The translations under genes and the position numbers were made by a program. Positions 28,021 through 62,955 of a DNA stretch of 64,000 nt are shown piece by piece. The notes beneath the pieces were generated by a model. It ran no database searches. It was not told the origin of the DNA and saw nothing but the letters and a program-made list of their open reading frames with translations. Where the stretch lies: positions 62,001 through 126,000 of the forward strand of contig NZ_PSZM01000045.1 of NCBI RefSeq assembly GCF_002964975.1, read 5' to 3'. The DNA is from Apibacter adventoris. Its GTDB lineage: Bacteria > Bacteroidota > Bacteroidia > Flavobacteriales > Weeksellaceae. Within the stretch, counting starts at the first letter, position 1; every line of letters starts with the position of its first letter.

Positions 28021-28069
28021 CCCATAAAATAAAAAGATTTGAAAATTTCAAATCTTTTTATTTTATGGG
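28021..28069. terminator. Long perfect palindrome, bidirectional terminator
   Basis: Bases 28021-28044 and 28046-28069 are perfect complements (24-bp arms around one central base), beginning CCCATAAAATAAAAAG and mirrored at the other end. The core GATTTGAAA/TTTCAAATC is flanked by A- and T-tracts, so it can terminate both pepT and the convergent gene whose stop codon (28058-28060) lies inside it. Confidence 0.85.
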
Positions 28070-37070: not shown

Positions 37071-37102
37071 ATGATTTATTTTCTAAATATAATTTAAATT
37101 AA

Positions 37103-37139
37103 AGTAAAAAAGCTGAAGTTAAACTTCAGCTTTTTTACT
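37103..37139. terminator. Bidirectional terminator between convergent genes
   Basis: An 18-bp perfect stem (AGTAAAAAAGCTGAAGTT at 37103-37120, its complement at 37122-37139). The GC core GCTGAAG/CTTCAGC is flanked by A- and T-tracts on both sides, so it can serve the TonB receptor gene and the RNA-binding protein gene. Confidence 0.88.
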
Positions 37140-37164
37140 TATACCTAATTTAATTATAAAATTA

Positions 37165-52266: not shown

Positions 52267-52310
52267 AAATCCGGTAATAATTTATTCATTTTCTACTTAC
52301 CGGATTTTTA
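52267..52310. terminator. Stem-loop terminator between convergent genes
   Basis: AAATCCGGTAA (52267-52277) pairs with TTACCGGATTT (52297-52307) around a 19-base loop and is followed by more T. It lies 11 bp after the PEBP stop, with the convergent regulator gene ending at its other foot. Confidence 0.75.
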
Positions 52311-52982
52311 AACTTCTTGTGAATACAAAGCTCTTAATACCCAATATCTAAAGTCAGAATCTAAAGTGAATGAGTAAAAAACAAGTTCATTTAAGGCTAA
52401 AACCATATTCTCTTCTTTTTTCTCGAAAATTCCCATCCTCATTCCTTCTCTATTAACCATAATACCAAACCTTCCTAATATTCTATGAATATTTTCTTTA
52501 CTGACGGATTCAAAAATAAGTACATCTCCATTTTTATAAGTAAATCCTTCCGGAAAATTTTGAGAATTATCAACTTCTATAGCTAAGAGATTAAATGGCG
52601 AACTATTAGGTATACTAATTTTAGGCAAAGTCTCTAAAAATTCAGGTTCAAGAAAATTACTGATATAATCATTAAAATTTACTGAAGAAACATACGGAAT
52701 CTCTACAAACCTATCCTTTTTCTTCAATTTTTCCATATCCAGTACTAAGCTGGTATCAAAATGCAATAATTCATTTACAGATAAATCTTTTAAAATAAAA
52801 TCATTTAATGGAATGCCAAAATATTTAGCAATATTAACAATAATTTCGATTTTAGGTTCTGCCCTCAATTCCTCATAAGAACTGATATTTCCCCTTGTAA
52901 GACTAAATATATCTGCAAATGCTTGCTGGCTTAAACCTTTAACGCTTCTAATTTTTTTTATATTCCTTCCTACTTTGCTCAT
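52308..52982 (-). CDS. XRE-family regulator with S24-like C-terminal domain
   Basis: I start the protein at the ATG at 52982 (224 residues), since the longer frame adds an unrelated leader. Residues 1-60 are an XRE HTH: GRNIKKIRSVKGLSQQAFADIFSLTRGNISSYEE, then KIEIIVNIAKYFGIPLNDFI. Residues about 120-224 resemble the peptidase S24/LexA-type fold (NLLAIEVDNSQNF, then TYKNGDVLIFE), but I cannot find the catalytic lysine, so self-cleavage is doubtful. It is divergent from the YbjN-PspA-flotillin-ATPase gene run, with a strong inverted repeat between them. I infer that it controls that run and itself. Confidence 0.88.
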   Translation of the reverse strand: MSKVGRNIKKIRSVKGLSQQAFADIFSLTRGNISSYEELRAEPKIEIIVNIAKYFGIPLNDFILKDLSVNELLHFDTSLVLDMEKLKKKDRFVEIPYVSSVNFNDYISNFLEPEFLETLPKISIPNSSPFNLLAIEVDNSQNFPEGFTYKNGDVLIFESVSKENIHRILGRFGIMVNREGMRMGIFEKKEENMVLALNELVFYSFTLDSDFRYWVLRALYSQEV

Positions 52983-53021
52983 AAAAATGCTAAATTTTTT
53001 TGCAATTAAAAAATATTTAGC

Positions 53022-53050
53022 TATATTTGCTAAAACTATTAGCAAATATA
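53022..53050. promoter_or_regulatory. Symmetric operator carrying divergent promoter boxes
   Basis: TATATTTGCTAA (53022-53033) and TTAGCAAATATA (53039-53050) form a perfect 12-bp inverted repeat with spacer AACTA. Each arm begins with TATATTTG, an exact TAnnTTTG box pointing toward its own gene, so one protein dimer could cover both promoters. A further TATATTTG for the plus-strand gene lies at 53056-53063. Confidence 0.75.
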
Positions 53051-53084
53051 TTACATATATTTGAGATAACTAAAACTCACTCGC

Positions 53085-53474
53085 ATGTATTTCAAAAAAA
53101 TAGAAAATTTCATTTCCGAACTGGGACATACAATTTCCTATAAAGATGAAAAACAAAGTATATTTTGTATTGAAAATGAAGAAGATGGCATTAAAAACCT
53201 CATAATAGGAATTGCTCCACCTATAGTCGTTTTAGAACAATACATATTCACCTTACATAACGACGATAAAGAAATATTAAAATCTTTATTACAAAAAAAC
53301 AGAGATATAGTGCATGGTGCTTTTGTTTTGGATGAAACCGGAAAAAAAGTGATTTTTCGGTATACTCTGCAAATTGAGCATCTGGACATTAATGAATTAG
53401 AAGGAGCTTTAAACTCTTTAGGTCTTTTACTAAGTGAATATTATGAACAAATACTAGAATTTTCAAAAAAATAA
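53085..53474 (+). CDS. YbjN / CesT-Tir-chaperone-like small protein (129 aa)
   Basis: A 129-residue soluble alpha/beta protein without a signal peptide. The order beta-rich N-half (ISYKDEKQSIFCIEN, LIIGIAPPIVVLEQYIF), helix (KEILKSLLQKNRDIVHGAFVLDE), strand (KVIFRYTLQIEHLD) and C-terminal helix (ELEGALNSLGLLLSEYYEQI) is that of YbjN/DUF2170-type proteins in the type III chaperone-like fold. Such proteins often precede pspA-like genes. It is the first gene of the run and lies 11 bp before pspA. It may act as a chaperone or adaptor for the PspA or ATPase component (inference). Confidence 0.75.
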   Translation: MYFKKIENFISELGHTISYKDEKQSIFCIENEEDGIKNLIIGIAPPIVVLEQYIFTLHNDDKEILKSLLQKNRDIVHGAFVLDETGKKVIFRYTLQIEHLDINELEGALNSLGLLLSEYYEQILEFSKK

Positions 53475-53485
53475 AAAAAATTATT

Positions 53486-54187
53486 ATGAATATCTTTAAA
53501 CGACTTTTACGAATAGGAACAGCAGAAATACATTCTGTTGTAGACAAAATGGAAGATCCTATAAGAATGACTGAACAAGGAATTAGAGAAATGAAAGAAG
53601 ATTTGGAAAAAAGTCTGGAAGCTCTTGCCCAAGTAAAAGCCCTTGCAATACGGGCAAAAAATGATATCATAAAAAAATCTTCTGATGCTGAAGATTATGA
53701 AAATAAAGCGTTTCTACTCATGTCAAAAGCTCAAAAAGGCGAGTTGGATGCAATACAAGCAGAAAAATTAGCTAAAGAAGCCCTTTCTCTTAAAGCTCAT
53801 CTACTTTCTGAAGTAGAAATTCTCAATGGTGAGAAAATTCAGCATGAAAATGCTGTTGATGAAATGCAAAAAAATGTTGAAATATTAAAATTTAATATCA
53901 ACAAGTGGGAAAACGAATTACGCATTTTAAGAGCCCGTGTAAAAGTAAGTAAAGCTACAAAAGAAGTAAATAAACAACTTGCTCAAATTGATAACAACAG
54001 CACCATCAGTATGTTAGAAAAAATGAAAGAAAAAGTTACAGAAGAAGAAGCCTTAGCAGAAGCTTACGGAGAATTGGCTAACCAAAATATTTCTATTGAT
54101 GAAGAAATAGACCGTGCTATAGGCAAAGACTCTTTAAAAGTAAACAATGATTTAGATAACATAAAAAAAAGGTTAGGGATGGAATAA
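53486..54187 (+). CDS. pspA: PspA/IM30 family membrane-stress protein
   Basis: A 233-residue, almost wholly helical coiled-coil protein. It opens with the amphipathic membrane-binding helix MNIFKRLLRIGTAEIHSVVD. The conserved MEDPIRMTEQGIREMKEDL follows, then long heptad helices to the C-terminal helix with IDRAIGKDSLKVNNDLDNIK. PspA/Vipp1 proteins are bacterial relatives of ESCRT-III and assemble on damaged membranes. The length is usual. It sits between a YbjN-like gene and a YqiJ-like gene, and no pspBC or pspF is present, so this is not the enterobacterial phage-shock operon. Confidence 0.93.
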   Translation: MNIFKRLLRIGTAEIHSVVDKMEDPIRMTEQGIREMKEDLEKSLEALAQVKALAIRAKNDIIKKSSDAEDYENKAFLLMSKAQKGELDAIQAEKLAKEALSLKAHLLSEVEILNGEKIQHENAVDEMQKNVEILKFNINKWENELRILRARVKVSKATKEVNKQLAQIDNNSTISMLEKMKEKVTEEEALAEAYGELANQNISIDEEIDRAIGKDSLKVNNDLDNIKKRLGME

Positions 54188-54231
54188 ATCCGAATTCAAA
54201 ACCAACTTTATAATCTAAAACTAACCTTGTC

Positions 54232-54978
54232 ATGACTGAATTGCTACATTCTTTTTTCTACCCTTTATCTAATGCCATCATGAGTGGTTTTATGATAGTT
54301 ATACTTATCTACTGGCTGTTCTCTTTTCTTGGAATAGGATTAGGTGAATTGGATTTTGGGACAGATTTCGGGACAGATATAGACTCGGATATTGATGTAG
54401 ATACTCATGTAGAAACAGACACCCAGCCGGATACAAATTATCATGGAAAAGCTTCTTCTTATCCAGAATTAGACGACAACCATGTTACACATGAAAATGA
54501 AGGAGACGGCCTATTTATACGTTTTTTAAAATTCATGAATGTCGGAAAAGTTCCTTTTATGCTAATTTTATCTACTTTAAAATTTTTTACCTGGGTAGGT
54601 TCTTTAATTACCACTCAATTTACCCCCGTAGGAAACTGGGGCTGGAAATCGGTTTTTATTTTAATTCCTTGTTTTATTGTCGGAGCAGTTCTTACTAAAT
54701 ATGCGACCAACCCACTGGCACGTTTTCTTTCCAAAACCGGATACCAAGGTGAAGAAAGAACCGAATTTCTTGGAAGATCCGGTCGAATGATATCTACTAT
54801 TTCTAAAGATAAGATAGGAAGTGCAGAATTTATTATTGAAAAAAATCCGATACGTCTCAACGTAATCAGCCAAAGCGGTGAGGAAATTAAATATGGAGAA
54901 TCAGTAATGATTACAGATGAAACTCAAGATAAAAAATTTTATTACGTTACCAAAGAAGTTACTATTGATCAAAATTAA
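54232..54978 (+). CDS. YqiJ-like OB-fold membrane protein
   Basis: A 248-residue protein. One N-terminal membrane helix (about 15-36) is followed by an Asp-rich linker (residues 43-70, with repeated FGTD and DxDxD), then two helices (about 103-125 and 140-160). The C-terminal soluble OB-fold domain (about 175-248) contains GEERTEFLGRSGRMISTI and GESVMITDETQDKKFYYV. This is the YqiJ/NfeD-like arrangement that is normally encoded beside a flotillin, as here. It is presumed to sit in the inner membrane as the flotillin's partner. Confidence 0.87.
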   Translation: MTELLHSFFYPLSNAIMSGFMIVILIYWLFSFLGIGLGELDFGTDFGTDIDSDIDVDTHVETDTQPDTNYHGKASSYPELDDNHVTHENEGDGLFIRFLKFMNVGKVPFMLILSTLKFFTWVGSLITTQFTPVGNWGWKSVFILIPCFIVGAVLTKYATNPLARFLSKTGYQGEERTEFLGRSGRMISTISKDKIGSAEFIIEKNPIRLNVISQSGEEIKYGESVMITDETQDKKFYYVTKEVTIDQN

Positions 54979-55014
54979 TCATATAAATATCAACATTTAA
55001 AAACATTTAATATT

Positions 55015-57204
55015 ATGGAAATAGGAGGCATAATCGCTGTCATTGTCGGAACTTTTATGTTCATTATTTTATTATCTTTAGCCATACTCGCATCATTTTA
55101 CAAAAAAATTCCTCAGGGAAAAGCCATTGTAAGAACCGGGGTTGGAGGAACGAAAGTAGCCTTTAATAAAGGAATTTATGTGATCCCTGTCTTGCACAAA
55201 ATGGAAATTATGGATATTTCCGTTAAAAAATTACAAATTGAAAGGATGGAACAAGACGGATTAATCTGTAAAGATAACATCCGGGCTGATATAAAAGTAG
55301 CCTTTTTCATTCGGGTAAACAAATCGGTAGACGATGTCATTAACGTAGCTCAGACCTTGGGCTGTGAAAGAGCCAGTGATGTGGCTACTTTAAGAAATAT
55401 TTTTGAAGCGAAATTTTCAGAAGCATTAAAAACCGTAGGTAAAAAATTTGAATTTATTGAACTTTATGAAGCCCGCCGCGAATTTAGAGATGAAATTCTT
55501 AATATTATTGGTACCGATCTTAACGGCTACAATTTAGATGACTGTGCCATTGATTATCTGGAACAAACCAATTTGAATTTTCTAGATCCTCAAAACATCT
55601 TGGATTCTGAAGGAATTAAAAAAATTACCGAGTTAACCGCAAATCAAAATATCAATGCCAACCTAATTCGAAGAGATGAGCAAAAAACCATAAAAAAACA
55701 AGACGTAGAAGCCCGTGAAGCCATTCTTGAATTAGAAAGACAATTAGCTGAAAAGGAAGAAAAACAAAAAAGAGAAGTAGATAACATTAAAGCAAGAGAA
55801 GAAGCTGAAATACTAAAAGTACGCGAAGAAGAAAGGTTAAAGGCTGAAACCGTACGTATTACTACCGAAGAAAGTTTGGCTGTACAAGAAGAAAACAAAC
55901 TCCGTCAAATTATTATTGCCGCTAAAAACAAAGAGAGAACTAACGCGGTAGAAACAGAAAGAGTAGAAAAAGACCGAGCACTCGAACAAACCGAAAGAGA
56001 AAGAATTGTTACCCTTGCTCAAATTAATAAAGAAAAAGTAGTAGAAGAAGAAAAGAAAAATATTCAGGATGTAATCCGAGAAAGAGTACAATTGGAAAAA
56101 GGTGTGGTTGAGGAACAACAAAATGTGAAAGACATAGAAGTATTACGTGAAGTAGAACGTCAGAAACAAGCAGGTATTACCTTAGCAAGCCAACAGGCAG
56201 AAGAAAAATTAATTAAAACTGTAAAAGAAGCAGAAGCATTAAAACAAGCAGAGGAACAAAAAGCCCAACAATTACTTATTGATGCTGAAGCCCAAAAAGA
56301 AGCTGCGGTTAAAAACGCTGAAGCCAGAAAAACCTTAGCCGATGCACAGGCACGAGAAGATGCTACCTTAGGTTTAGCTGAAGCAGAAGTAATTAAAGCC
56401 AAAGCAGAGGCAGATGAACAAAAAGGAGTTGTAGAAGCTAACATTATAGAGAAAAAAGCCAAAGCGGAAGCTATCAGCATTGAATTAAAAGCAGAAGCTA
56501 AGCGAAAAGAAGGCTTAGTGGAAGCAGAAGTAACCCGCGAAAAAGCTTTGGCATCTGCAGAAGGAGAAGCTAGCATTATTGAAAAAACCTCTGTGGCCGA
56601 AGCTACCGGTATTCAGGCAAAAGCCGATGCCAAACGTAAAGAAGGTTTAGCAGAAGCAGATGTCATTAAACAAAAAGCTCTATCTGAAGCAGAAGGAATT
56701 CATGAAAAAGCCGAGGCTATGAAAAAATTGGATGGAGTGGGAAAAGACCATGAAGAGTTTAAGCTGAAATTACAAAAAAACAAAGAGGTAGAACTGGCTC
56801 AAATTCAAATACAAAAAGAAATTGCTCAAGCGCAAGCATCTGTATTATCCGAAGCTATGAAGTCTGCTAAAATTGACATCGTAGGAGGAGAATCTACTTT
56901 CTTTGAAAATATAATTAATCAGATTTCAAGAGCCAAAGGATTCGATAAACTGGTTAATGAAAGTGAGACTATAACAGAAATTAAAGAGGCTTTACTTGGA
57001 AATGGTGGAGAAGGCGATTTATATGAACGAATACGAAACTATGCCGATAAACTGAATATTTCTTCCGAAGATATCAAAAACCTGAGCATTGCTTCCCTTA
57101 TATTCAAGATGCAACAAAATGCAGGAAGCGAAGACCAAAGCGTTTTAGCTAACTTATTTACCTTAGCTAAAACCCTGGGTATATCTAATAAAAAATTAAA
57201 ATAA
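55015..57204 (+). CDS. YqiK-like flotillin (SPFH/band 7 protein)
   Basis: A 729-residue flotillin. An N-terminal membrane helix (5-30) precedes the SPFH domain (about 33-200), which contains KIPQGKAIVRTGVGGTKVAF, IKVAFFIRVNKSVDDVINVAQTLG and FIELYEARREFRDEIL. A very long Glu/Ala/Lys-rich coiled coil (about 210-630) follows and includes a 44-residue internal repeat built on AKRKEGL-EA. The last 100 residues form a separate helical domain. Flotillins scaffold membrane microdomains. Neighbour YqiJ-like protein and PspA suggest a joint membrane-maintenance role. Confidence 0.92.
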   Translation: MEIGGIIAVIVGTFMFIILLSLAILASFYKKIPQGKAIVRTGVGGTKVAFNKGIYVIPVLHKMEIMDISVKKLQIERMEQDGLICKDNIRADIKVAFFIRVNKSVDDVINVAQTLGCERASDVATLRNIFEAKFSEALKTVGKKFEFIELYEARREFRDEILNIIGTDLNGYNLDDCAIDYLEQTNLNFLDPQNILDSEGIKKITELTANQNINANLIRRDEQKTIKKQDVEAREAILELERQLAEKEEKQKREVDNIKAREEAEILKVREEERLKAETVRITTEESLAVQEENKLRQIIIAAKNKERTNAVETERVEKDRALEQTERERIVTLAQINKEKVVEEEKKNIQDVIRERVQLEKGVVEEQQNVKDIEVLREVERQKQAGITLASQQAEEKLIKTVKEAEALKQAEEQKAQQLLIDAEAQKEAAVKNAEARKTLADAQAREDATLGLAEAEVIKAKAEADEQKGVVEANIIEKKAKAEAISIELKAEAKRKEGLVEAEVTREKALASAEGEASIIEKTSVAEATGIQAKADAKRKEGLAEADVIKQKALSEAEGIHEKAEAMKKLDGVGKDHEEFKLKLQKNKEVELAQIQIQKEIAQAQASVLSEAMKSAKIDIVGGESTFFENIINQISRAKGFDKLVNESETITEIKEALLGNGGEGDLYERIRNYADKLNISSEDIKNLSIASLIFKMQQNAGSEDQSVLANLFTLAKTLGISNKKLK

Positions 57205-57208
57205 CCAA

Positions 57209-57916
57209 ATGAAAAATATCCTATTTATTTTGTGTATAGCTTTATGGGGCTATACATGTAAAGCTCAAATTATAAAAGAAGAATGCATAACTGTATATGA
57301 CTCAGTTAGAGAGCGTAAAATACCCTTTGCTATATATTATGATACGTCTATACCCAGAGGTATAGTTATTTTTAATCACGGGTATACAAAAAATTATGGT
57401 GGAAGTTATAAATCTTACAAAAAACTCAATAAAAAAATTGCCTCTTTAGGTTACTATGTCATAAGCATTCAGCATGAATTGCCTACTGATGAATTACTCG
57501 CTATGGAAGGGAATTTATATCTAACCCGTATGCCTAACTGGAAGCGCGGAGTAGAAAATATAACTTTTATTCGGAAAGAACTCATGAAACTTAAACCCGA
57601 ACTTCCCTGGAATAATTTAATTATTGCCGGACATTCCAATGGAGGAGACATGACCATGTTGTATGCCCGAGAGTATCCGGAACAAATCACCAAAGCTATT
57701 TCACTGGATAATCGCAGAATGCCAATACCCAGAACTTCCAAACCGGAAATCTATTACCTGAAAGCCTACGATTTCCCTGCGGATGAAGGAGTACTACCTA
57801 CGCCTGAAGAAGAAAAGAAATTCGATATTCACATAATTAAATTTCCAACCATTAAGCATAATGGCATGGGAGATCAGGAATTGGTAATAGAATGTGTGGA
57901 AAATATATTGAAATAA
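57209..57916 (+). CDS. Secreted alpha/beta hydrolase
   Basis: A 235-residue protein with a signal peptide (1-20, ending YTCKAQ; Cys17 makes a lipoprotein conceivable but the lipobox is poor). An alpha/beta-hydrolase fold follows, with oxyanion region IVIFNHGYTKNYGG, nucleophile Ser143 in IAGHSNGGDMTML, probable Asp in SLDNRRMP and His in IKHNGMGDQE. The substrate cannot be told from sequence; an ester or lipid-derived compound is possible. It begins 4 bp after the flotillin stop, so it is probably part of the module even though it acts outside the cytoplasm. Confidence 0.82.
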   Translation: MKNILFILCIALWGYTCKAQIIKEECITVYDSVRERKIPFAIYYDTSIPRGIVIFNHGYTKNYGGSYKSYKKLNKKIASLGYYVISIQHELPTDELLAMEGNLYLTRMPNWKRGVENITFIRKELMKLKPELPWNNLIIAGHSNGGDMTMLYAREYPEQITKAISLDNRRMPIPRTSKPEIYYLKAYDFPADEGVLPTPEEEKKFDIHIIKFPTIKHNGMGDQELVIECVENILK

Positions 57917-58014
57917 ATTATTATGGTAAACATACATGAAATACAAATTCTTTCAGAAGAATAATCGGAGAATATTAAAATGAAAAAACAAATTTAAATT
58001 CTCAATTTATTTAA

Positions 58015-58086
58015 TTTCTATTCTTTTGTATTAAAGCAAAAGAATAGAAAGAATATTTAGCAAATATAAATAAACAATTTGTTTAT
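58015..58086 (+). promoter_or_regulatory. Hairpin, operator half-site and palindrome before the ATPase gene
   Basis: TTTCTATTCTTTTG (58015-58028) pairs perfectly with 58037-58050 around an 8-base loop. Next, TTAGCAAATATA (58057-58068) repeats exactly one arm of the operator at 53022-53050. Then ATAAACAA-T-TTGTTTAT (58070-58086) is a perfect 8-bp palindrome ending seven bases before the ATG. No T-tract follows the hairpin, so it need not terminate transcription. The set suggests an internal control point in the gene run. Confidence 0.55.
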
Positions 58087-58092
58087 CAAATT

Positions 58093-61000
58093 ATGGCAGA
58101 ATTAGAAGAAAATAAAAAAACGGATTCTCTAGATTCCGGTACTTATGAAATAATAAAAAAGAGACTTCAAAGCCAAAAAGAAGACCTCACGACACGTTTA
58201 GGAAAACTAAATAACGCCAGAAAAGAAGTTTTCAATTCTGTAGAATTTACTTTGGCGGCTAATCAGAGAATTACTACCGAAAATAACTGTACAGCCCGAG
58301 GGATCATTGCAGTAGGAGACCTTTGTTTGTTTGCCTATAATGTTCATTTTGGATTACGAACAGACATCCAATTAAGCGATGTTTTTAGTATCTATTCTTT
58401 TGATGCAGAACAAACTCATCAATTTATTCCTCAATCGTTAGATTTGATTAACGATGAAACCTTCATCAACGATTATAAAAACTTATATCAATACTACCGA
58501 GATTCTATATTTTCACGATTCCGAAGGACGGAAAATTATTTATATATGATTTTCCAAACCAGTAAGAATATAGATGATTTGAAAGCCTTTAAATGGTTGG
58601 TCAAAGACGATAAACTGATTTATCAGGACGATCGAAGCATTCATGAAGTTCAAAAAGCTCAACAATACGAATTTAAATGGATAAAAACCTCGCTAGACAA
58701 CCGCAGGCTGGGAATACATCCTCACATCTCTATTCAGGATAAAGTTTTTATAGAAGCCATCAACGGTGATATTACCTTTAAAATTGAAGATAATACTGAT
58801 ACCGGAAAAGGGATTTATTCCGAAACCGTAGAAAACAAAGATCAACAACTAGATGATGCTGAATATTACTATGCCGATTTAGGAAATTTTATCCTTATAC
58901 GGATTAAACCTTATCAGGAAAATTTCCGTGCCTTTATTTTCAATAATAAAACCAAGGAAGTTCTTAATATTCCAACCCTGAATGAAACAGGAATCTTACT
59001 ACCCGACAATCAAGGAATTATATTTGCTAATGGCTATTATTTGCAAAGCGGAGAATATAAAATATTTGAAAGCGAATTAACAAATTTGGAATTTGTACGC
59101 CGAATACCCTCTGCCAATGGCGAAGATTATCTTTTCATTTTCTACCATAATGAAAAGAATATTTATGTACTCATGTCTTACAACATCATCAAACAACAAG
59201 TGGAAACTCCTATTATCTGTAATGGATTTACTCTGTTTAAAAACGGAAAACTTATCTATTTTCGTTCAGAAGAGGAAGCAGTAAAGCATCATGTAGTACA
59301 GATCTGGCAGACTCCGTATCAGTCAGAAATTGTTGAAAACCGAGAAAAAAAAGATAACGAACTTTATAAAATAGGTAACAAAGATATTGTCAAAGCTATG
59401 GCAGAATGTCAGGAAGTCATCAACCTTATAAGTAAAGAAGATTCTTATGAAGGATTATATGGCGATATTTCCAAAAAAGCTAATGATATAATCGATTCTT
59501 TTTTCTGGATTACAGATCCTTCTGCTTTTCAATTGTCAGAACCGTTAAAACAAATTAAATCTATAGCGGATACGGCGGTTGATGAATTTGAAAAAGTCCA
59601 ACAACAAAGAAAAAATGCTTCACAGATACTTAATGAAATCACCGATAAAGTTGAGAAGCTTTTATTTAGCTTAAAAAACACTAAAGGTGATACCTTGGAA
59701 AATCTGGTGAAATTATTGGCTGAAAACCGAAAGTTACAAGGAGAAGTTACGGAAATGGGGAATGTAAAATATATAGATCTGGAAAAAATAGACAACTTAA
59801 AAGTTAAGTTGAATAAAAGTAATCACACGCTTTCAGACCAAACCGTTGAATTTCTTTTACTTGATGAGGCATTAGCTCCCTATGAAAACAAAGTACAAGA
59901 TGAACATAAAAGAGTAGAAAAAGTTACTAAAGTAATAGACGGACAAAAAGTAGAAGAAAACTGTAAATTAGTATCTTCCGAACTGGAATTGCTGATAGAT
60001 ATACTTAATAGTTTAAAAATTGAAGATACTACCCAAACTACTAAAATTATTGAAAAAATCTCGGTAATTTTTGCTTCCCTAAATGAAGTTCGTACCCTGC
60101 TTAAACGAAAACTAGATTCTTTAAAAAGTAGTGAAGCCATAGCTGAATTTCATGCACAACTTACGTTGTTGGACCAAAGTATTATGAACTTTCTGGAACT
60201 ATCCTCTTCTCCAGAAAAATGCGATGAATACTTTACAAAAGTAAGCGTACAAATTGAAGAAATGGAAAGTAAATTTGCAGATTTTGATGAATTTATTACC
60301 GAAATTGCCGATAAACGAGAAGAAGTAAGCAAAGCTTTTGATTCCAAAAAAGCACAACTCATAGAGCAAATTAACAAACGAACTACATCTTTAGAGCAAA
60401 TTGGTCTTCGTATACTAAAAAATATTGAAACTAAAGCAGGTTCATTTAAGTCCAAAGAAGAAATACAGGCATTTTTCTCTACGGATTTGATGATTGATAA
60501 AGTACGAAAGCTTGCCTTAGAATTAAAAGAACTGGGAGATGTTTCCAAAGCTGAAAATCTGGAAAATAGTTTAAAAACATCTCTGGAAGATAGCCTTCGT
60601 GCCCTTAGGGACAAAAAAGATTTGTTTGTAGACGGTGATAATATCATAAGCCTAGGAAACTACAAATTTGCTGTAAACTTTCAGCCTTTGGATTTAACCA
60701 TAGTCAGAAGAAACAATCTGCTTTATTACCACCTTACCGGTACCAGTTTCTTTTATGAAATAGAAGATGATACAATGTATAAGTATCGCACCCTTTGGGA
60801 GCAAGAAGTAGTTTCGGAAAATTCTAAAGTGTACCGAGCGGAATACTTAGCCTACCAAGCTTTTCAGGAAAGTTTGAAAAATAAAAATTTTGATCCTGAA
60901 AACTATATAAAACTAAAAACGGAACAGAGCTATGCAGAGTCCTATTTAAAAGGTGTACATGATTTTGATGCTTTGGAAATATATAAATCATTGCTCCAGC

Positions 61001-62955
61001 TTCATACAAATTTAAAAACCTTAACCTACTCTCCTTCCCTGCGTGCTGTAGCCCAATTATTCTGGAACAGCCTAACTGAAGAAGATACAGATAAGCTGAA
61101 TAAACTTATCACCTCTGCGAGCTATGTGTTAAAAGTTTTTCCGGAATCCGAAAATTACAACTATGTCATTCAACGACTACAAGAAAAGTTTGAAAAATGG
61201 AATCGCTCATTTTCCGAATTGGAATTTTCATCTGAAATCCTTGCTGAATACTTGTTTAAGGAATTTTCAAAATCTCCGTTTTTTACTAAAAGTATTCAGG
61301 CCGATAGTCTTAAAAAAGAGTTTTTAAACTATCTGAAAGCTCAAAATGCAATTAGCATTTTTGAAGCTGATTGCAACGATGCTTCAATGGAACTGGCTGA
61401 ACGGTTTTACCTGATACAAAACTGGTTGGTTTCTTATATCAATCTATCCGATACCTATTCGGCTTTTGATAAATATATTGAAGAAGCCTGTTGTTTACTT
61501 ATGTTTGAAAAAGATAACGCTTATCCTATATTGGAATATCCGGATCACTTAACTATTGATACTTTAAAAGGAAGCCATCCGGTTATAGAAAAAAATCTTT
61601 ATACACTCGATTACCATCAGTTTATACATAAACTGAAAATGTTTTCAGAAATCAGTGTTCCTGAATTTCAGGAATTTTCACAAGCCAAAGAACAGCTGCT
61701 AAATCAATACAAAAAAACTCTGAAACTCAATGAACTTCAGCCCAAAGTTCTGACTTCTTTCGTCAGAAATAAGCTGATTAATGAAGTGTATTTTCCACTG
61801 ATCGGAGCTAACATGGCTAAACAAATCGGTGTTGCAGGCGACAATAAAAGAACTGCACGAATGGGGATGCTTTTGCTGGTTTCCCCTCCGGGTTACGGAA
61901 AAACCACACTGATGGAATATCTGGCTAAATCGCTGGGGTTAAATTTTGTAAAAATTAATGGTCCTACCATTGGTCACTCTATAACTTCTATAGATCCAAA
62001 TGAGGCTAAAACCTCCGGAGCAAGGGAAGAACTGAAAAAAATTAACCTTTCTTTTGAAATGGCTGACAATGTTATGCTCTATCTGGACGATATTCAGCAT
62101 TGTAGTGCCGAATTCCTTCAAAAATTCATTTCTCTGGCAGACGGACAAAGAAAAATGGACGGAACTTTTAACGGTGAGAGTAAAACCTATGACTTAAGGG
62201 GTAAACGTTTTTGTATTGTAATGGCCGGGAATCCATACACGGAAAGCGGAGAAAAATTCCAGATTCCGGATATGCTTGCCAACCGGTCAGATGTTTATAA
62301 CCTCGGAGATGTTATTGGAAGTACCGAAAATCTGTTCAAACTTAGTTTACTGGAAAATTCCATTGCAGAAAATACCTATTTACAAAAGCTAAGCAGCCAC
62401 AGTTTTGATGATTTCTATCAACTGATTTCTTATATAGAAACAGGAAATGAAGAATTATTGAATCTTGAAGGAAATTATTCTAATCAGGAAATTGAGGAGT
62501 TTATATCGGTATTGAAAAAATGTATGCAAGTACGTGAAGTGGTAATGAAAGTAAATCAGAATTATATCCAGAGTGCTGCCATGGATCATGCCTACCGTAC
62601 GGAACCTGCTTTTAAATTACAGGGATCTTACCGGGATATGAATAAAATGGTAGGGAAAATTGTTCCATTGATGAATGAAGATGAGGTGCAGGAACTAATT
62701 ATGACTCATTATGAAAACGAATCGCAGACTTTAACCTCTGATACGGAAGCTAATTTACTGAAATTGAAAGAGCTTATGAAGGTATTAACTCCTGAAGAGA
62801 CCAAACGATGGACTTCTATTAAAGAGATTTTTGTTAAAAACAACAAACTCGGAACTTTAACTCAGGATAATCAGGTAGGACAGGTAATTGCCCAGTTAAT
62901 GGACTTTAATGTAAATTTGGAAGGTATTGTTAAAACCTTAAATAAAAAAGAATAA
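58093..62955 (+). CDS. DUF3686 / AAA+ giant ATPase ('DNA repair ATPase' family)
   Basis: A 1620-residue soluble protein. The first 430 residues form a beta-rich DUF3686-type region (ARGIIAVGDLCLFAYNVHFGL, IYSFDAEQTHQFIPQSLDL). Residues about 430-900 are largely coiled coil, followed by a mixed region. The AAA+ domain lies at about 1220-1480, with Walker A SPPGYGKTTLMEY (about 1263-1275), Walker B MLYLDDIQHCS (about 1326-1336) and sensor-like VMAGNPYTESGEKF. A helical lid ends the protein. The databank name DNA repair ATPase has little experimental support that I know of. Context with PspA and flotillin suggests an ATP-driven role at the membrane (inference). Confidence 0.87.
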   Translation: MAELEENKKTDSLDSGTYEIIKKRLQSQKEDLTTRLGKLNNARKEVFNSVEFTLAANQRITTENNCTARGIIAVGDLCLFAYNVHFGLRTDIQLSDVFSIYSFDAEQTHQFIPQSLDLINDETFINDYKNLYQYYRDSIFSRFRRTENYLYMIFQTSKNIDDLKAFKWLVKDDKLIYQDDRSIHEVQKAQQYEFKWIKTSLDNRRLGIHPHISIQDKVFIEAINGDITFKIEDNTDTGKGIYSETVENKDQQLDDAEYYYADLGNFILIRIKPYQENFRAFIFNNKTKEVLNIPTLNETGILLPDNQGIIFANGYYLQSGEYKIFESELTNLEFVRRIPSANGEDYLFIFYHNEKNIYVLMSYNIIKQQVETPIICNGFTLFKNGKLIYFRSEEEAVKHHVVQIWQTPYQSEIVENREKKDNELYKIGNKDIVKAMAECQEVINLISKEDSYEGLYGDISKKANDIIDSFFWITDPSAFQLSEPLKQIKSIADTAVDEFEKVQQQRKNASQILNEITDKVEKLLFSLKNTKGDTLENLVKLLAENRKLQGEVTEMGNVKYIDLEKIDNLKVKLNKSNHTLSDQTVEFLLLDEALAPYENKVQDEHKRVEKVTKVIDGQKVEENCKLVSSELELLIDILNSLKIEDTTQTTKIIEKISVIFASLNEVRTLLKRKLDSLKSSEAIAEFHAQLTLLDQSIMNFLELSSSPEKCDEYFTKVSVQIEEMESKFADFDEFITEIADKREEVSKAFDSKKAQLIEQINKRTTSLEQIGLRILKNIETKAGSFKSKEEIQAFFSTDLMIDKVRKLALELKELGDVSKAENLENSLKTSLEDSLRALRDKKDLFVDGDNIISLGNYKFAVNFQPLDLTIVRRNNLLYYHLTGTSFFYEIEDDTMYKYRTLWEQEVVSENSKVYRAEYLAYQAFQESLKNKNFDPENYIKLKTEQSYAESYLKGVHDFDALEIYKSLLQLHTNLKTLTYSPSLRAVAQLFWNSLTEEDTDKLNKLITSASYVLKVFPESENYNYVIQRLQEKFEKWNRSFSELEFSSEILAEYLFKEFSKSPFFTKSIQADSLKKEFLNYLKAQNAISIFEADCNDASMELAERFYLIQNWLVSYINLSDTYSAFDKYIEEACCLLMFEKDNAYPILEYPDHLTIDTLKGSHPVIEKNLYTLDYHQFIHKLKMFSEISVPEFQEFSQAKEQLLNQYKKTLKLNELQPKVLTSFVRNKLINEVYFPLIGANMAKQIGVAGDNKRTARMGMLLLVSPPGYGKTTLMEYLAKSLGLNFVKINGPTIGHSITSIDPNEAKTSGAREELKKINLSFEMADNVMLYLDDIQHCSAEFLQKFISLADGQRKMDGTFNGESKTYDLRGKRFCIVMAGNPYTESGEKFQIPDMLANRSDVYNLGDVIGSTENLFKLSLLENSIAENTYLQKLSSHSFDDFYQLISYIETGNEELLNLEGNYSNQEIEEFISVLKKCMQVREVVMKVNQNYIQSAAMDHAYRTEPAFKLQGSYRDMNKMVGKIVPLMNEDEVQELIMTHYENESQTLTSDTEANLLKLKELMKVLTPEETKRWTSIKEIFVKNNKLGTLTQDNQVGQVIAQLMDFNVNLEGIVKTLNKKE

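What the first reader, a model, noticed from the sequence alone, without database searches (positions are those of the whole stretch)
53022..53063. One symmetric operator contains the promoter boxes of both divergent transcripts
A perfect 12-bp inverted repeat carries TATATTTG (the Bacteroidota -7 box) in each arm, facing outward to the XRE gene and to the YbjN-PspA run. A dimer bound here would switch both at once. A third TATATTTG at 53056-53063 could give the run a second, less exposed start.
Basis: partly seen in the sequence, partly recalled or inferred. Interest (0 to 1): 0.6.

Follow-up and report, generated by a model that had tools for sequence, protein, structure and literature searches.

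The report
Repressor operator overlapping two opposed promoters
The symmetric DNA site is very probably the binding site of the neighbouring repressor, kept in many Bacteroidota in front of a membrane-stress (PspA) gene cluster, and it is one of three such sites, one of them hidden inside the repressor's own gene.

Summary
Confirmed and enlarged. The perfect 12-bp inverted repeat (53022-53050, 5-bp spacer) with TATATTTG in each arm is there; by size alone it is near chance, but comparison shows it is real. A divergent XRE gene precedes the CesT/Tir(YbjN-like)-pspA pair in 109 of 111 loci, and the gap carries GCTAA-N5-TTWGC in 73 of 109 (44 of 72 dereplicated); other spacers give 0-2. The window has two: O1 (the reported repeat) and O2, 40 bp away over the -33 box of the psp-side promoter; the pair recurs in 13 of 13 further Bacteroidales loci scanned. 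At O1 the TA that makes an arm a -7 box is present on both sides in 15 of 15; at O2 in 2 of 12 and 0 of 15. A third site, O3, lies inside the XRE gene, held by codon choice (Ala GCT 82/95, Ser AGC 58/60; control Ala GCT 10/30). The XRE model resembles CI/LexA repressors. Best reading: an autoregulating CI-like repressor closing both promoters at O1, with O2 adding on the psp side and O3 looping or blocking. The boxes face inward; the third TATATTTG is unsupported. Binding and start sites are untested.

The parts
53022..53050 (.). O1, the reported repeat: operator core GCTAA-AACTA-TTAGC at 53029-53043, centre 53036; each arm holds a TATATTTG
52989..53003 (.). O2, second operator, core GCTAA-ATTTT-TTTGC, centre 52996, exactly 40 bp from O1
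52815..52829 (.). O3, operator-like site inside the XRE coding region (codons 52-56, Ala-Lys-Tyr-Phe-Gly), centre 52822, 174 bp from O2
   Evidence: matrix score 12.2; synonymous-codon bias across the family
52999..53002 (+). -33 box TTTG of the psp-side promoter, inside O2
53022..53029 (+). -7 box TATATTTG of the psp-side promoter, in the left arm of O1; expected start about 53034
   Evidence: box-to-start distance from PMC9723704
53043..53050 (-). -7 box TATATTTG of the XRE promoter, in the right arm of O1; expected start about 53038
   Evidence: TANNTTTG at this place in 15 of 15
53070..53073 (-). poor -33 box (TTAG) of the XRE promoter; TTTG at the mirror place in 9 of the 13 Bacteroidales loci
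53056..53063 (+). third TATATTTG; no -33 box, shared only with the same-genus locus
52308..52982 (-). XRE repressor gene, 224 aa, HTH plus CI/LexA-like C-terminal domain
53085..53474 (+).
   Evidence: PF22550, E 9e-53
53486..54187 (+). pspA
   Evidence: PF04012, E 6e-44
54232..54978 (+). YqiJ-like membrane protein gene
   Evidence: PF21001, 24.9 bits against a cut-off of 23
55015..57204 (+). flotillin-like gene, by operon position and a weak partial FloT match
   Evidence: no Pfam match; FloT 25.6 bits against a cut-off of 700
58093..62955 (+). large AAA+ protein with DUF3686; whether it is on the same transcript is not tested
   Evidence: PF12458, E 1e-166; PF00004

Best explanation
The repeat is the main operator (O1) of the neighbouring CI/LexA-like XRE repressor. 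The repressor shuts its own gene and the CesT/Tir-pspA membrane-stress genes by covering the -7 boxes of two face-to-face promoters whose starts lie at the two ends of O1's 5-bp spacer. A second operator (O2), 40 bp away, covers the -33 box of the psp-side promoter only, so that side should be held more tightly. A third operator (O3) inside the repressor gene probably strengthens repression by looping, or blocks elongation on the repressor gene. The operator word TTTGCTAA contains TTTG, the core of both Bacteroidota promoter boxes, so one protein-binding word can cover either box. Shown by sequence comparison: the operator word, its 5-bp spacer, the 40-bp pair, linkage to this XRE, and codon constraint at O3. 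Inferred: binding, repression, looping, and relief by an envelope signal, perhaps through the CesT/Tir protein or PspA acting on the C-terminal domain.
For: Divergent XRE in 109 of 111 loci. GCTAA-N5-TTWGC in 73 of 109 gaps, 44 of 72 dereplicated, against 0-2 for other spacers and 0.2 in shuffles. Matrix sites in 96 of 109 gaps, in 0 of 24 XRE loci without the psp partner. O1-O2 distance 40 bp in 15 of 15. TA completing the -7 box at O1 in 15 of 15 on each side, at O2 in 2 of 12 and 0 of 15. Half-site variants go with recognition-helix variants. O3 codon bias: Ala GCT 82/95, Ser AGC 58/60, Gly GGC 23/30; control Ala GCT 10/30. C-terminal domain matches LexA at Z 10.2.
Against: No start site, binding or expression was measured. 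The XRE promoter has a poor -33 box in the window (TTAG), and a -33 motif could not be found in F. johnsoniae (passage of PMC7366714). In 4 of 15 loci the left arm of O1 has TTAG in place of TTTG, so the psp-side -7 box is degenerate there. 13 of 109 gaps have no matrix site. Most other lineages have a single gap operator at the O2 place, so the O1 arrangement is not universal. Helix and half-site co-vary along lineages, so that test is not independent; GCTCA occurs 4 times and GCCAA 14 times with other helices.
Confidence: 0.75

Rival explanations
1. O1 is an operator, but only the psp-side promoter lies in it; the minus-strand TATATTTG is a by-product of symmetry and the XRE gene is transcribed from another start.
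For: The minus-strand -33 box in the window is poor and 4 of 15 loci have none; operator symmetry alone gives TTTG in the right arm.
Against: TA at +13/+14 of O1 in 15 of 15, which operator symmetry does not require, against 0 of 15 at O2; TTTG at the mirror -33 place in 9 of 15.
Confidence: 0.15
2. The XRE protein acts mainly as an activator of the psp operon, or activates its own promoter at low level, as RcoLS20 does.
For: RcoLS20, an Xre-family regulator, does both to its own promoter (abstract of PMC4207663).
Against: The operators cover -7 and -33 boxes, where a bound dimer would block polymerase.
Confidence: 0.12
3. A different regulator binds these sites and the XRE gene is a neighbour only.
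For: No binding data exist.
Against: Linkage in 109 of 111 loci, a site inside this XRE gene, no site in 24 other XRE loci, the exact operator once in the genome.
Confidence: 0.05
4. The repeat is a chance repeat or an RNA hairpin/terminator.
For: About one repeat of this size is expected per window by chance.
Against: With starts at 53034 and 53038 neither RNA would hold both arms (inference); word and spacer are conserved across orders.
Confidence: 0.03

Closest known systems
RcoLS20 switch of plasmid pLS20 (PMC4207663; abstract, section 10 and one passage seen)
   Same: Xre-family regulator; overlapping divergent promoters for the regulator and its target; more than one operator; DNA loop
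   Different: There the two promoters nearly coincide back to back (the Pr start lies 6 bp upstream of the Pc -35 box); here the -7 boxes face each other across one dyad. Target there is conjugation, here a PspA module; the third site here is inside the regulator gene; loop and tetramer are not shown here.
E. coli bio operator with BirA (recalled; searches did not bring up a paper on it)
   Same: One palindromic operator over two face-to-face promoters
   Different: Regulator family, partner genes, further operators
Lambda CI, 186 CI and LexA repressors
   Same: HTH plus C-terminal domain of the CI/LexA fold; several operators; autoregulation (inferred here)
   Different: No Pfam S24 match; no invariant Ser or Lys in the columns inspected; chromosomal stress operon
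CesT/Tir-PspA operon class (Ravi 2024, PMC11237479; section 19 and passages read)
   Same: CesT/Tir, PspA, YqiJ-like and AAA+ genes in a row
   Different: Main text does not mention an XRE regulator (0 occurrences) or operators; its supplements were not available
PspF and ClgR regulators of other psp operons (passages of PMC11237479)
   Same: A dedicated regulator gene beside pspA; ClgR also has a Cro-like HTH
   Different: PspF is an NtrC-type AAA+ enhancer-binding protein; partners differ

Membership tests
Lambda CI/LexA-type repressor | N-terminal XRE/Cro-type HTH | tested here: met
   PF12844 39.3 bits (cut-off 30.2), PF01381 33.1 bits (cut-off 23)
Lambda CI/LexA-type repressor | C-terminal domain of the CI/LexA fold | tested here: met
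   Model pLDDT 85, pTM 0.57; residues 93-223 to LexA 3k2z_B Z 10.2, rmsd 3.5, 117 aligned; whole-chain TM only 0.34-0.39
Lambda CI/LexA-type repressor | Sequence match to the S24 peptidase family | tested here: not met
   No Pfam S24 match at E <= 0.1
Lambda CI/LexA-type repressor | Ser-Lys dyad and self-cleavage site | tested here: inconclusive
   No invariant Ser or Lys in the columns inspected over 19 rows; register judged by eye
bio-operator-like face-to-face operator | Boxes of two opposed promoters inside one palindrome | tested here: met
   (sequence only)
bio-operator-like face-to-face operator | Both transcripts start there and are repressed together | not testable with these tools
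   needs start mapping and an xre deletion
RcoLS20-like looping switch | Xre-family regulator with overlapping promoters and more than one operator | tested here: met
RcoLS20-like looping switch | Tetramer and DNA loop | not testable with these tools
   distances suggest helical phasing only
CesT/Tir-PspA operon class (Ravi 2024) | CesT/Tir, PspA, YqiJ-like and AAA+ proteins | tested here: met
   PF22550, PF04012, PF21001, PF12458 with PF00004
CesT/Tir-PspA operon class (Ravi 2024) | band-7/flotillin protein | tested here: inconclusive
   No Pfam match; partial FloT match below cut-off

The most novel reading that the evidence does not exclude
A three-operator switch, widespread in Bacteroidota, for the PspA membrane-stress module: a CI-like repressor, two promoters that exclude each other at one dyad, and an intragenic operator kept by codon choice in the repressor's own DNA-binding domain, joined by a loop of preferred helical phase, giving an all-or-none response.
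Probability: 0.4. Interest if true: 0.78.

Novelty: new variant of a known kind. Interest (0 to 1): 0.62.

Why it matters
It names a probable regulator and exact operators for the PspA-type envelope-stress genes of Bacteroidota, for which the searches listed under Tried and rejected found none described. It shows a simple way to build an operator in this phylum: the repressor's half-site shares TTTG with the promoter boxes. The intragenic operator, visible as a codon-choice anomaly across the family, would be a DNA-binding constraint written into the coding sequence of the binding protein itself, and can be tested directly.

Tried and rejected
Regulon: the full operator word occurs once in the genome with 0 or 1 mismatch; with up to 3 mismatches 86 places per strand against 67 for the control word. 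A second, shorter word gave 55 and 58 matches against 37 and 43 with up to 2 mismatches (listing capped). Of the 24 loci fetched from these two searches (several are the own locus) the two best non-local sites scored 21.2 and 18.1: one lies in a permease coding region, one over a -7 box before a porV-like gene (gene name recalled). The second is absent before the gene in the 7 other same-genus genomes that could be read, of 8 (1 not found), G006 with its XRE included, a first try with too strict a motif, read only the own copy. Rejected as target.

Bipartite promoter scan of the window: 3 against 4.15 in shuffles, no enrichment, so the promoter calls rest on conservation.

Phasing of O3: after removing the main cluster (171-175 bp) the remaining 36 loci still prefer the same phase at 10.5 bp (u 2.49), but 158, 176-180 and 299 bp do not fit well and relatedness is not corrected. 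Kept as suggestive only.

Flaws told: the matrix was built from and run on the same gaps, and its shuffles keep single bases only; the half-sites were chosen after reading the gaps, which the other spacers control for; the two collections overlap (for example L076 and L150 have the same gap, as do L096 and L146), hence the dereplicated counts; O3 core counts used a looser pattern for linked genes (84 of 97) than for controls (1 of 30), a flaw the codon counts do not have; of the control genes only 6 have Gly or Ser at the last place, too few to test that codon.

Absence from print: searches (PspA with YbjN, flotillin, Bacteroidetes or Bacteroidota, XRE, Flavobacterium) and the main text of PMC11237479; supplements could not be read.

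Full report
The reported repeat is real. The window reads TATATTTGCTAA-AACTA-TTAGCAAATATA at 53022-53050, and TATATTTG lies at 53022 (+), 53050 (-) and 53056 (+). By size alone such a repeat is close to chance: 0.675 are expected per shuffled window; six were seen, two of them with much longer arms (24 and 19 bp). The case therefore has to rest on comparison.

The XRE gene (52308-52982, minus strand; its ATG is supported by relatives that begin at the same place) stands divergent to a CesT/Tir-type gene and pspA. Homologues of the CesT/Tir gene were fetched: 80 loci from named genomes (the best 80 of 383), 29 more from the order (30 loci given out of 42 genomes with a match among 395; the own locus is one of the 30), and the two same-genus loci. 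In 109 of these 111 loci an XRE gene of the same kind lies upstream on the opposite strand. Of the two misses, L055 begins 63 bp before the gene and L155 shows none. In a few loci another stretch has come between (for example L054, L059, L134). The gene is patchy: 2 of 9 genomes of the genus and 42 of 395 of the order.

The gaps share one word. GCTAA-N5-TTWGC, or its mirror, is in 73 of 109 gaps and in 44 of 72 after removing near-duplicates; the same half-sites at any other spacing from 0 to 15 give 0-2 of 109, and dinucleotide shuffles give 0.2 of 72 at N5. A matrix made from these sites finds a site in 96 of 109 gaps against 0.2% of base-shuffled ones (built and run on the same regions) and in 0 of 24 XRE loci that lack the psp partner. 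Half-sites vary with the recognition helix: the 7 loci with LARPSVGAYEE give 8 GCTCA and 6 GCTAA half-sites (one locus has no match), and the 8 with LKRAS(I/V)GAYEE pair GCTAA with GCCAA every time; with other helices GCTCA occurs 4 times and GCCAA 14 times, 9 of these with LTRGNISSYEE. This follows lineage, so it supports but does not prove that the XRE protein reads the word.

The window gap holds two such sites. O1 is the reported repeat (centre 53036). The two are exactly 40 bp apart here, in the same-genus locus and in 13 Bacteroidales loci, 15 of 15 scanned. L059, left out there because its XRE lies far from the psp genes, has the same pair; L054 has no site at score 12 or more. In the 15, the promoter toward the psp genes has TTTG at -37 or -38 (in O2) and TANNTTTG at -14 (in O1) in 11; in the other 4 the left arm reads TTAG. 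The opposed promoter has TANNTTTG at +14 in 15 of 15 and a mirror -33 box in 11 of 15: TTTG in 9, TTAG in the window and its same-genus relative. Within each locus O2 serves as control: the TA that completes a -7 box flanks O1 in 15 of 15 on both sides but O2 in 2 of 12 readable and 0 of 15. So the arms of O1 look like promoter boxes and not only operator arms. As the box spans -12 to -5 in F. psychrophilum (PMC9723704, passage), the starts are expected at about 53034 and 53038, the two ends of the spacer; two polymerases could not sit there together (inference). [quoted passage not shown] johnsoniae (passage of PMC7366714).

Outside these 15 loci the operator sits mostly where O2 sits, its right-arm TTTG serving as -33 box: a + strand -7 box begins 25-27 bp from the operator centre in 19 cases over 73 distinct regions; a + strand box at -14 occurs 6 times and a - strand box at +14 9 times. 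A second site about 40 bp further on also appears in some Nonlabens and other Flavobacteriales loci. The rule seems to be that TTTG in the operator word doubles as a promoter element (inference).

A third site lies inside the XRE gene. The matrix marks 52822 in the window and the matching place in several relatives. Codons there are strongly biased over 95 distinct genes: Ala GCT in 82 of 95 (34% elsewhere in these genes), Ser AGC in 58 of 60 (15%), Gly GGC in 23 of 30 (18%). In 30 XRE genes without the psp partner, Ala at the same place is GCT in 10 (35% elsewhere). Along the first 66 codons of 78 dereplicated genes, columns 56, 51, 55 and 52 rank first to fourth in codon bias, 53 and 54 tenth and twelfth. 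O3 lies 174 bp from O2 here. Over 75 distinct loci the distance to the nearest gap operator clusters near 173, 184, 194 and 204 bp, with exceptions. This suggests a loop and does not prove it.

The protein fits. Its model (pLDDT 85, pTM 0.57) pairs an HTH with a beta-rich domain. The best whole-chain matches are a lambda-186 hybrid repressor, lambda CI, 186 CI and LexA, at low whole-chain TM (0.34-0.39); residues 93-223 match LexA at Z 10.2. No Pfam S24 match was found and no invariant Ser or Lys in the columns inspected, so self-cleavage as a switch looks unlikely though not excluded. The signal is unknown.

The PspA of the window groups with gut Bacteroidales and not with its own family (Weeksellaceae; the family is inferred from shared gaps such as L150 and L076): a tree holding it together with the Weeksellaceae rows is rejected (p-AU 5e-62); the grouping with Bacteroidales has support 85/88, short of the threshold, and the groups were named after a first tree. 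The module, operators included, was probably acquired across orders.

The operon genes are described (Ravi 2024, PMC11237479, section 19); the regulator and operators are not in that main text nor in the searches listed. The logic has precedents: RcoLS20 (PMC4207663) and, from memory, the bio operator. I therefore call it a new variant of a known kind.

Noticed in passing
52815-52829: Operator-like site O3 inside the XRE coding region, held by codon choice across the family; now part of the explanation.
   Followed up: yes
52308-62955: The XRE-psp module is in 2 of 9 genomes of the genus and its PspA groups with gut Bacteroidales; probably acquired across orders.
   Followed up: partly
58015-58050: Perfect inverted repeat with 14-bp arms and 8-bp spacer between the hydrolase and the DUF3686 AAA+ gene, with a minus-strand TATATTTG at 58068 and a bipartite promoter match at 58090.
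   Followed up: no
28021-28069 and 37102-37140: Two long perfect inverted repeats (24- and 19-bp arms, 1-bp spacer), possibly terminators.
   Followed up: no
L041 (G000:C24:43054-43074): One-mismatch operator word over a -7 box before a porV-like gene; not found before the gene in the 7 other same-genus genomes that could be read.
   Followed up: yes
XRE codons 11, 18, 19 (window 52926-52952): Further columns of marked codon bias in the XRE family outside O3, unexplained.
   Followed up: no
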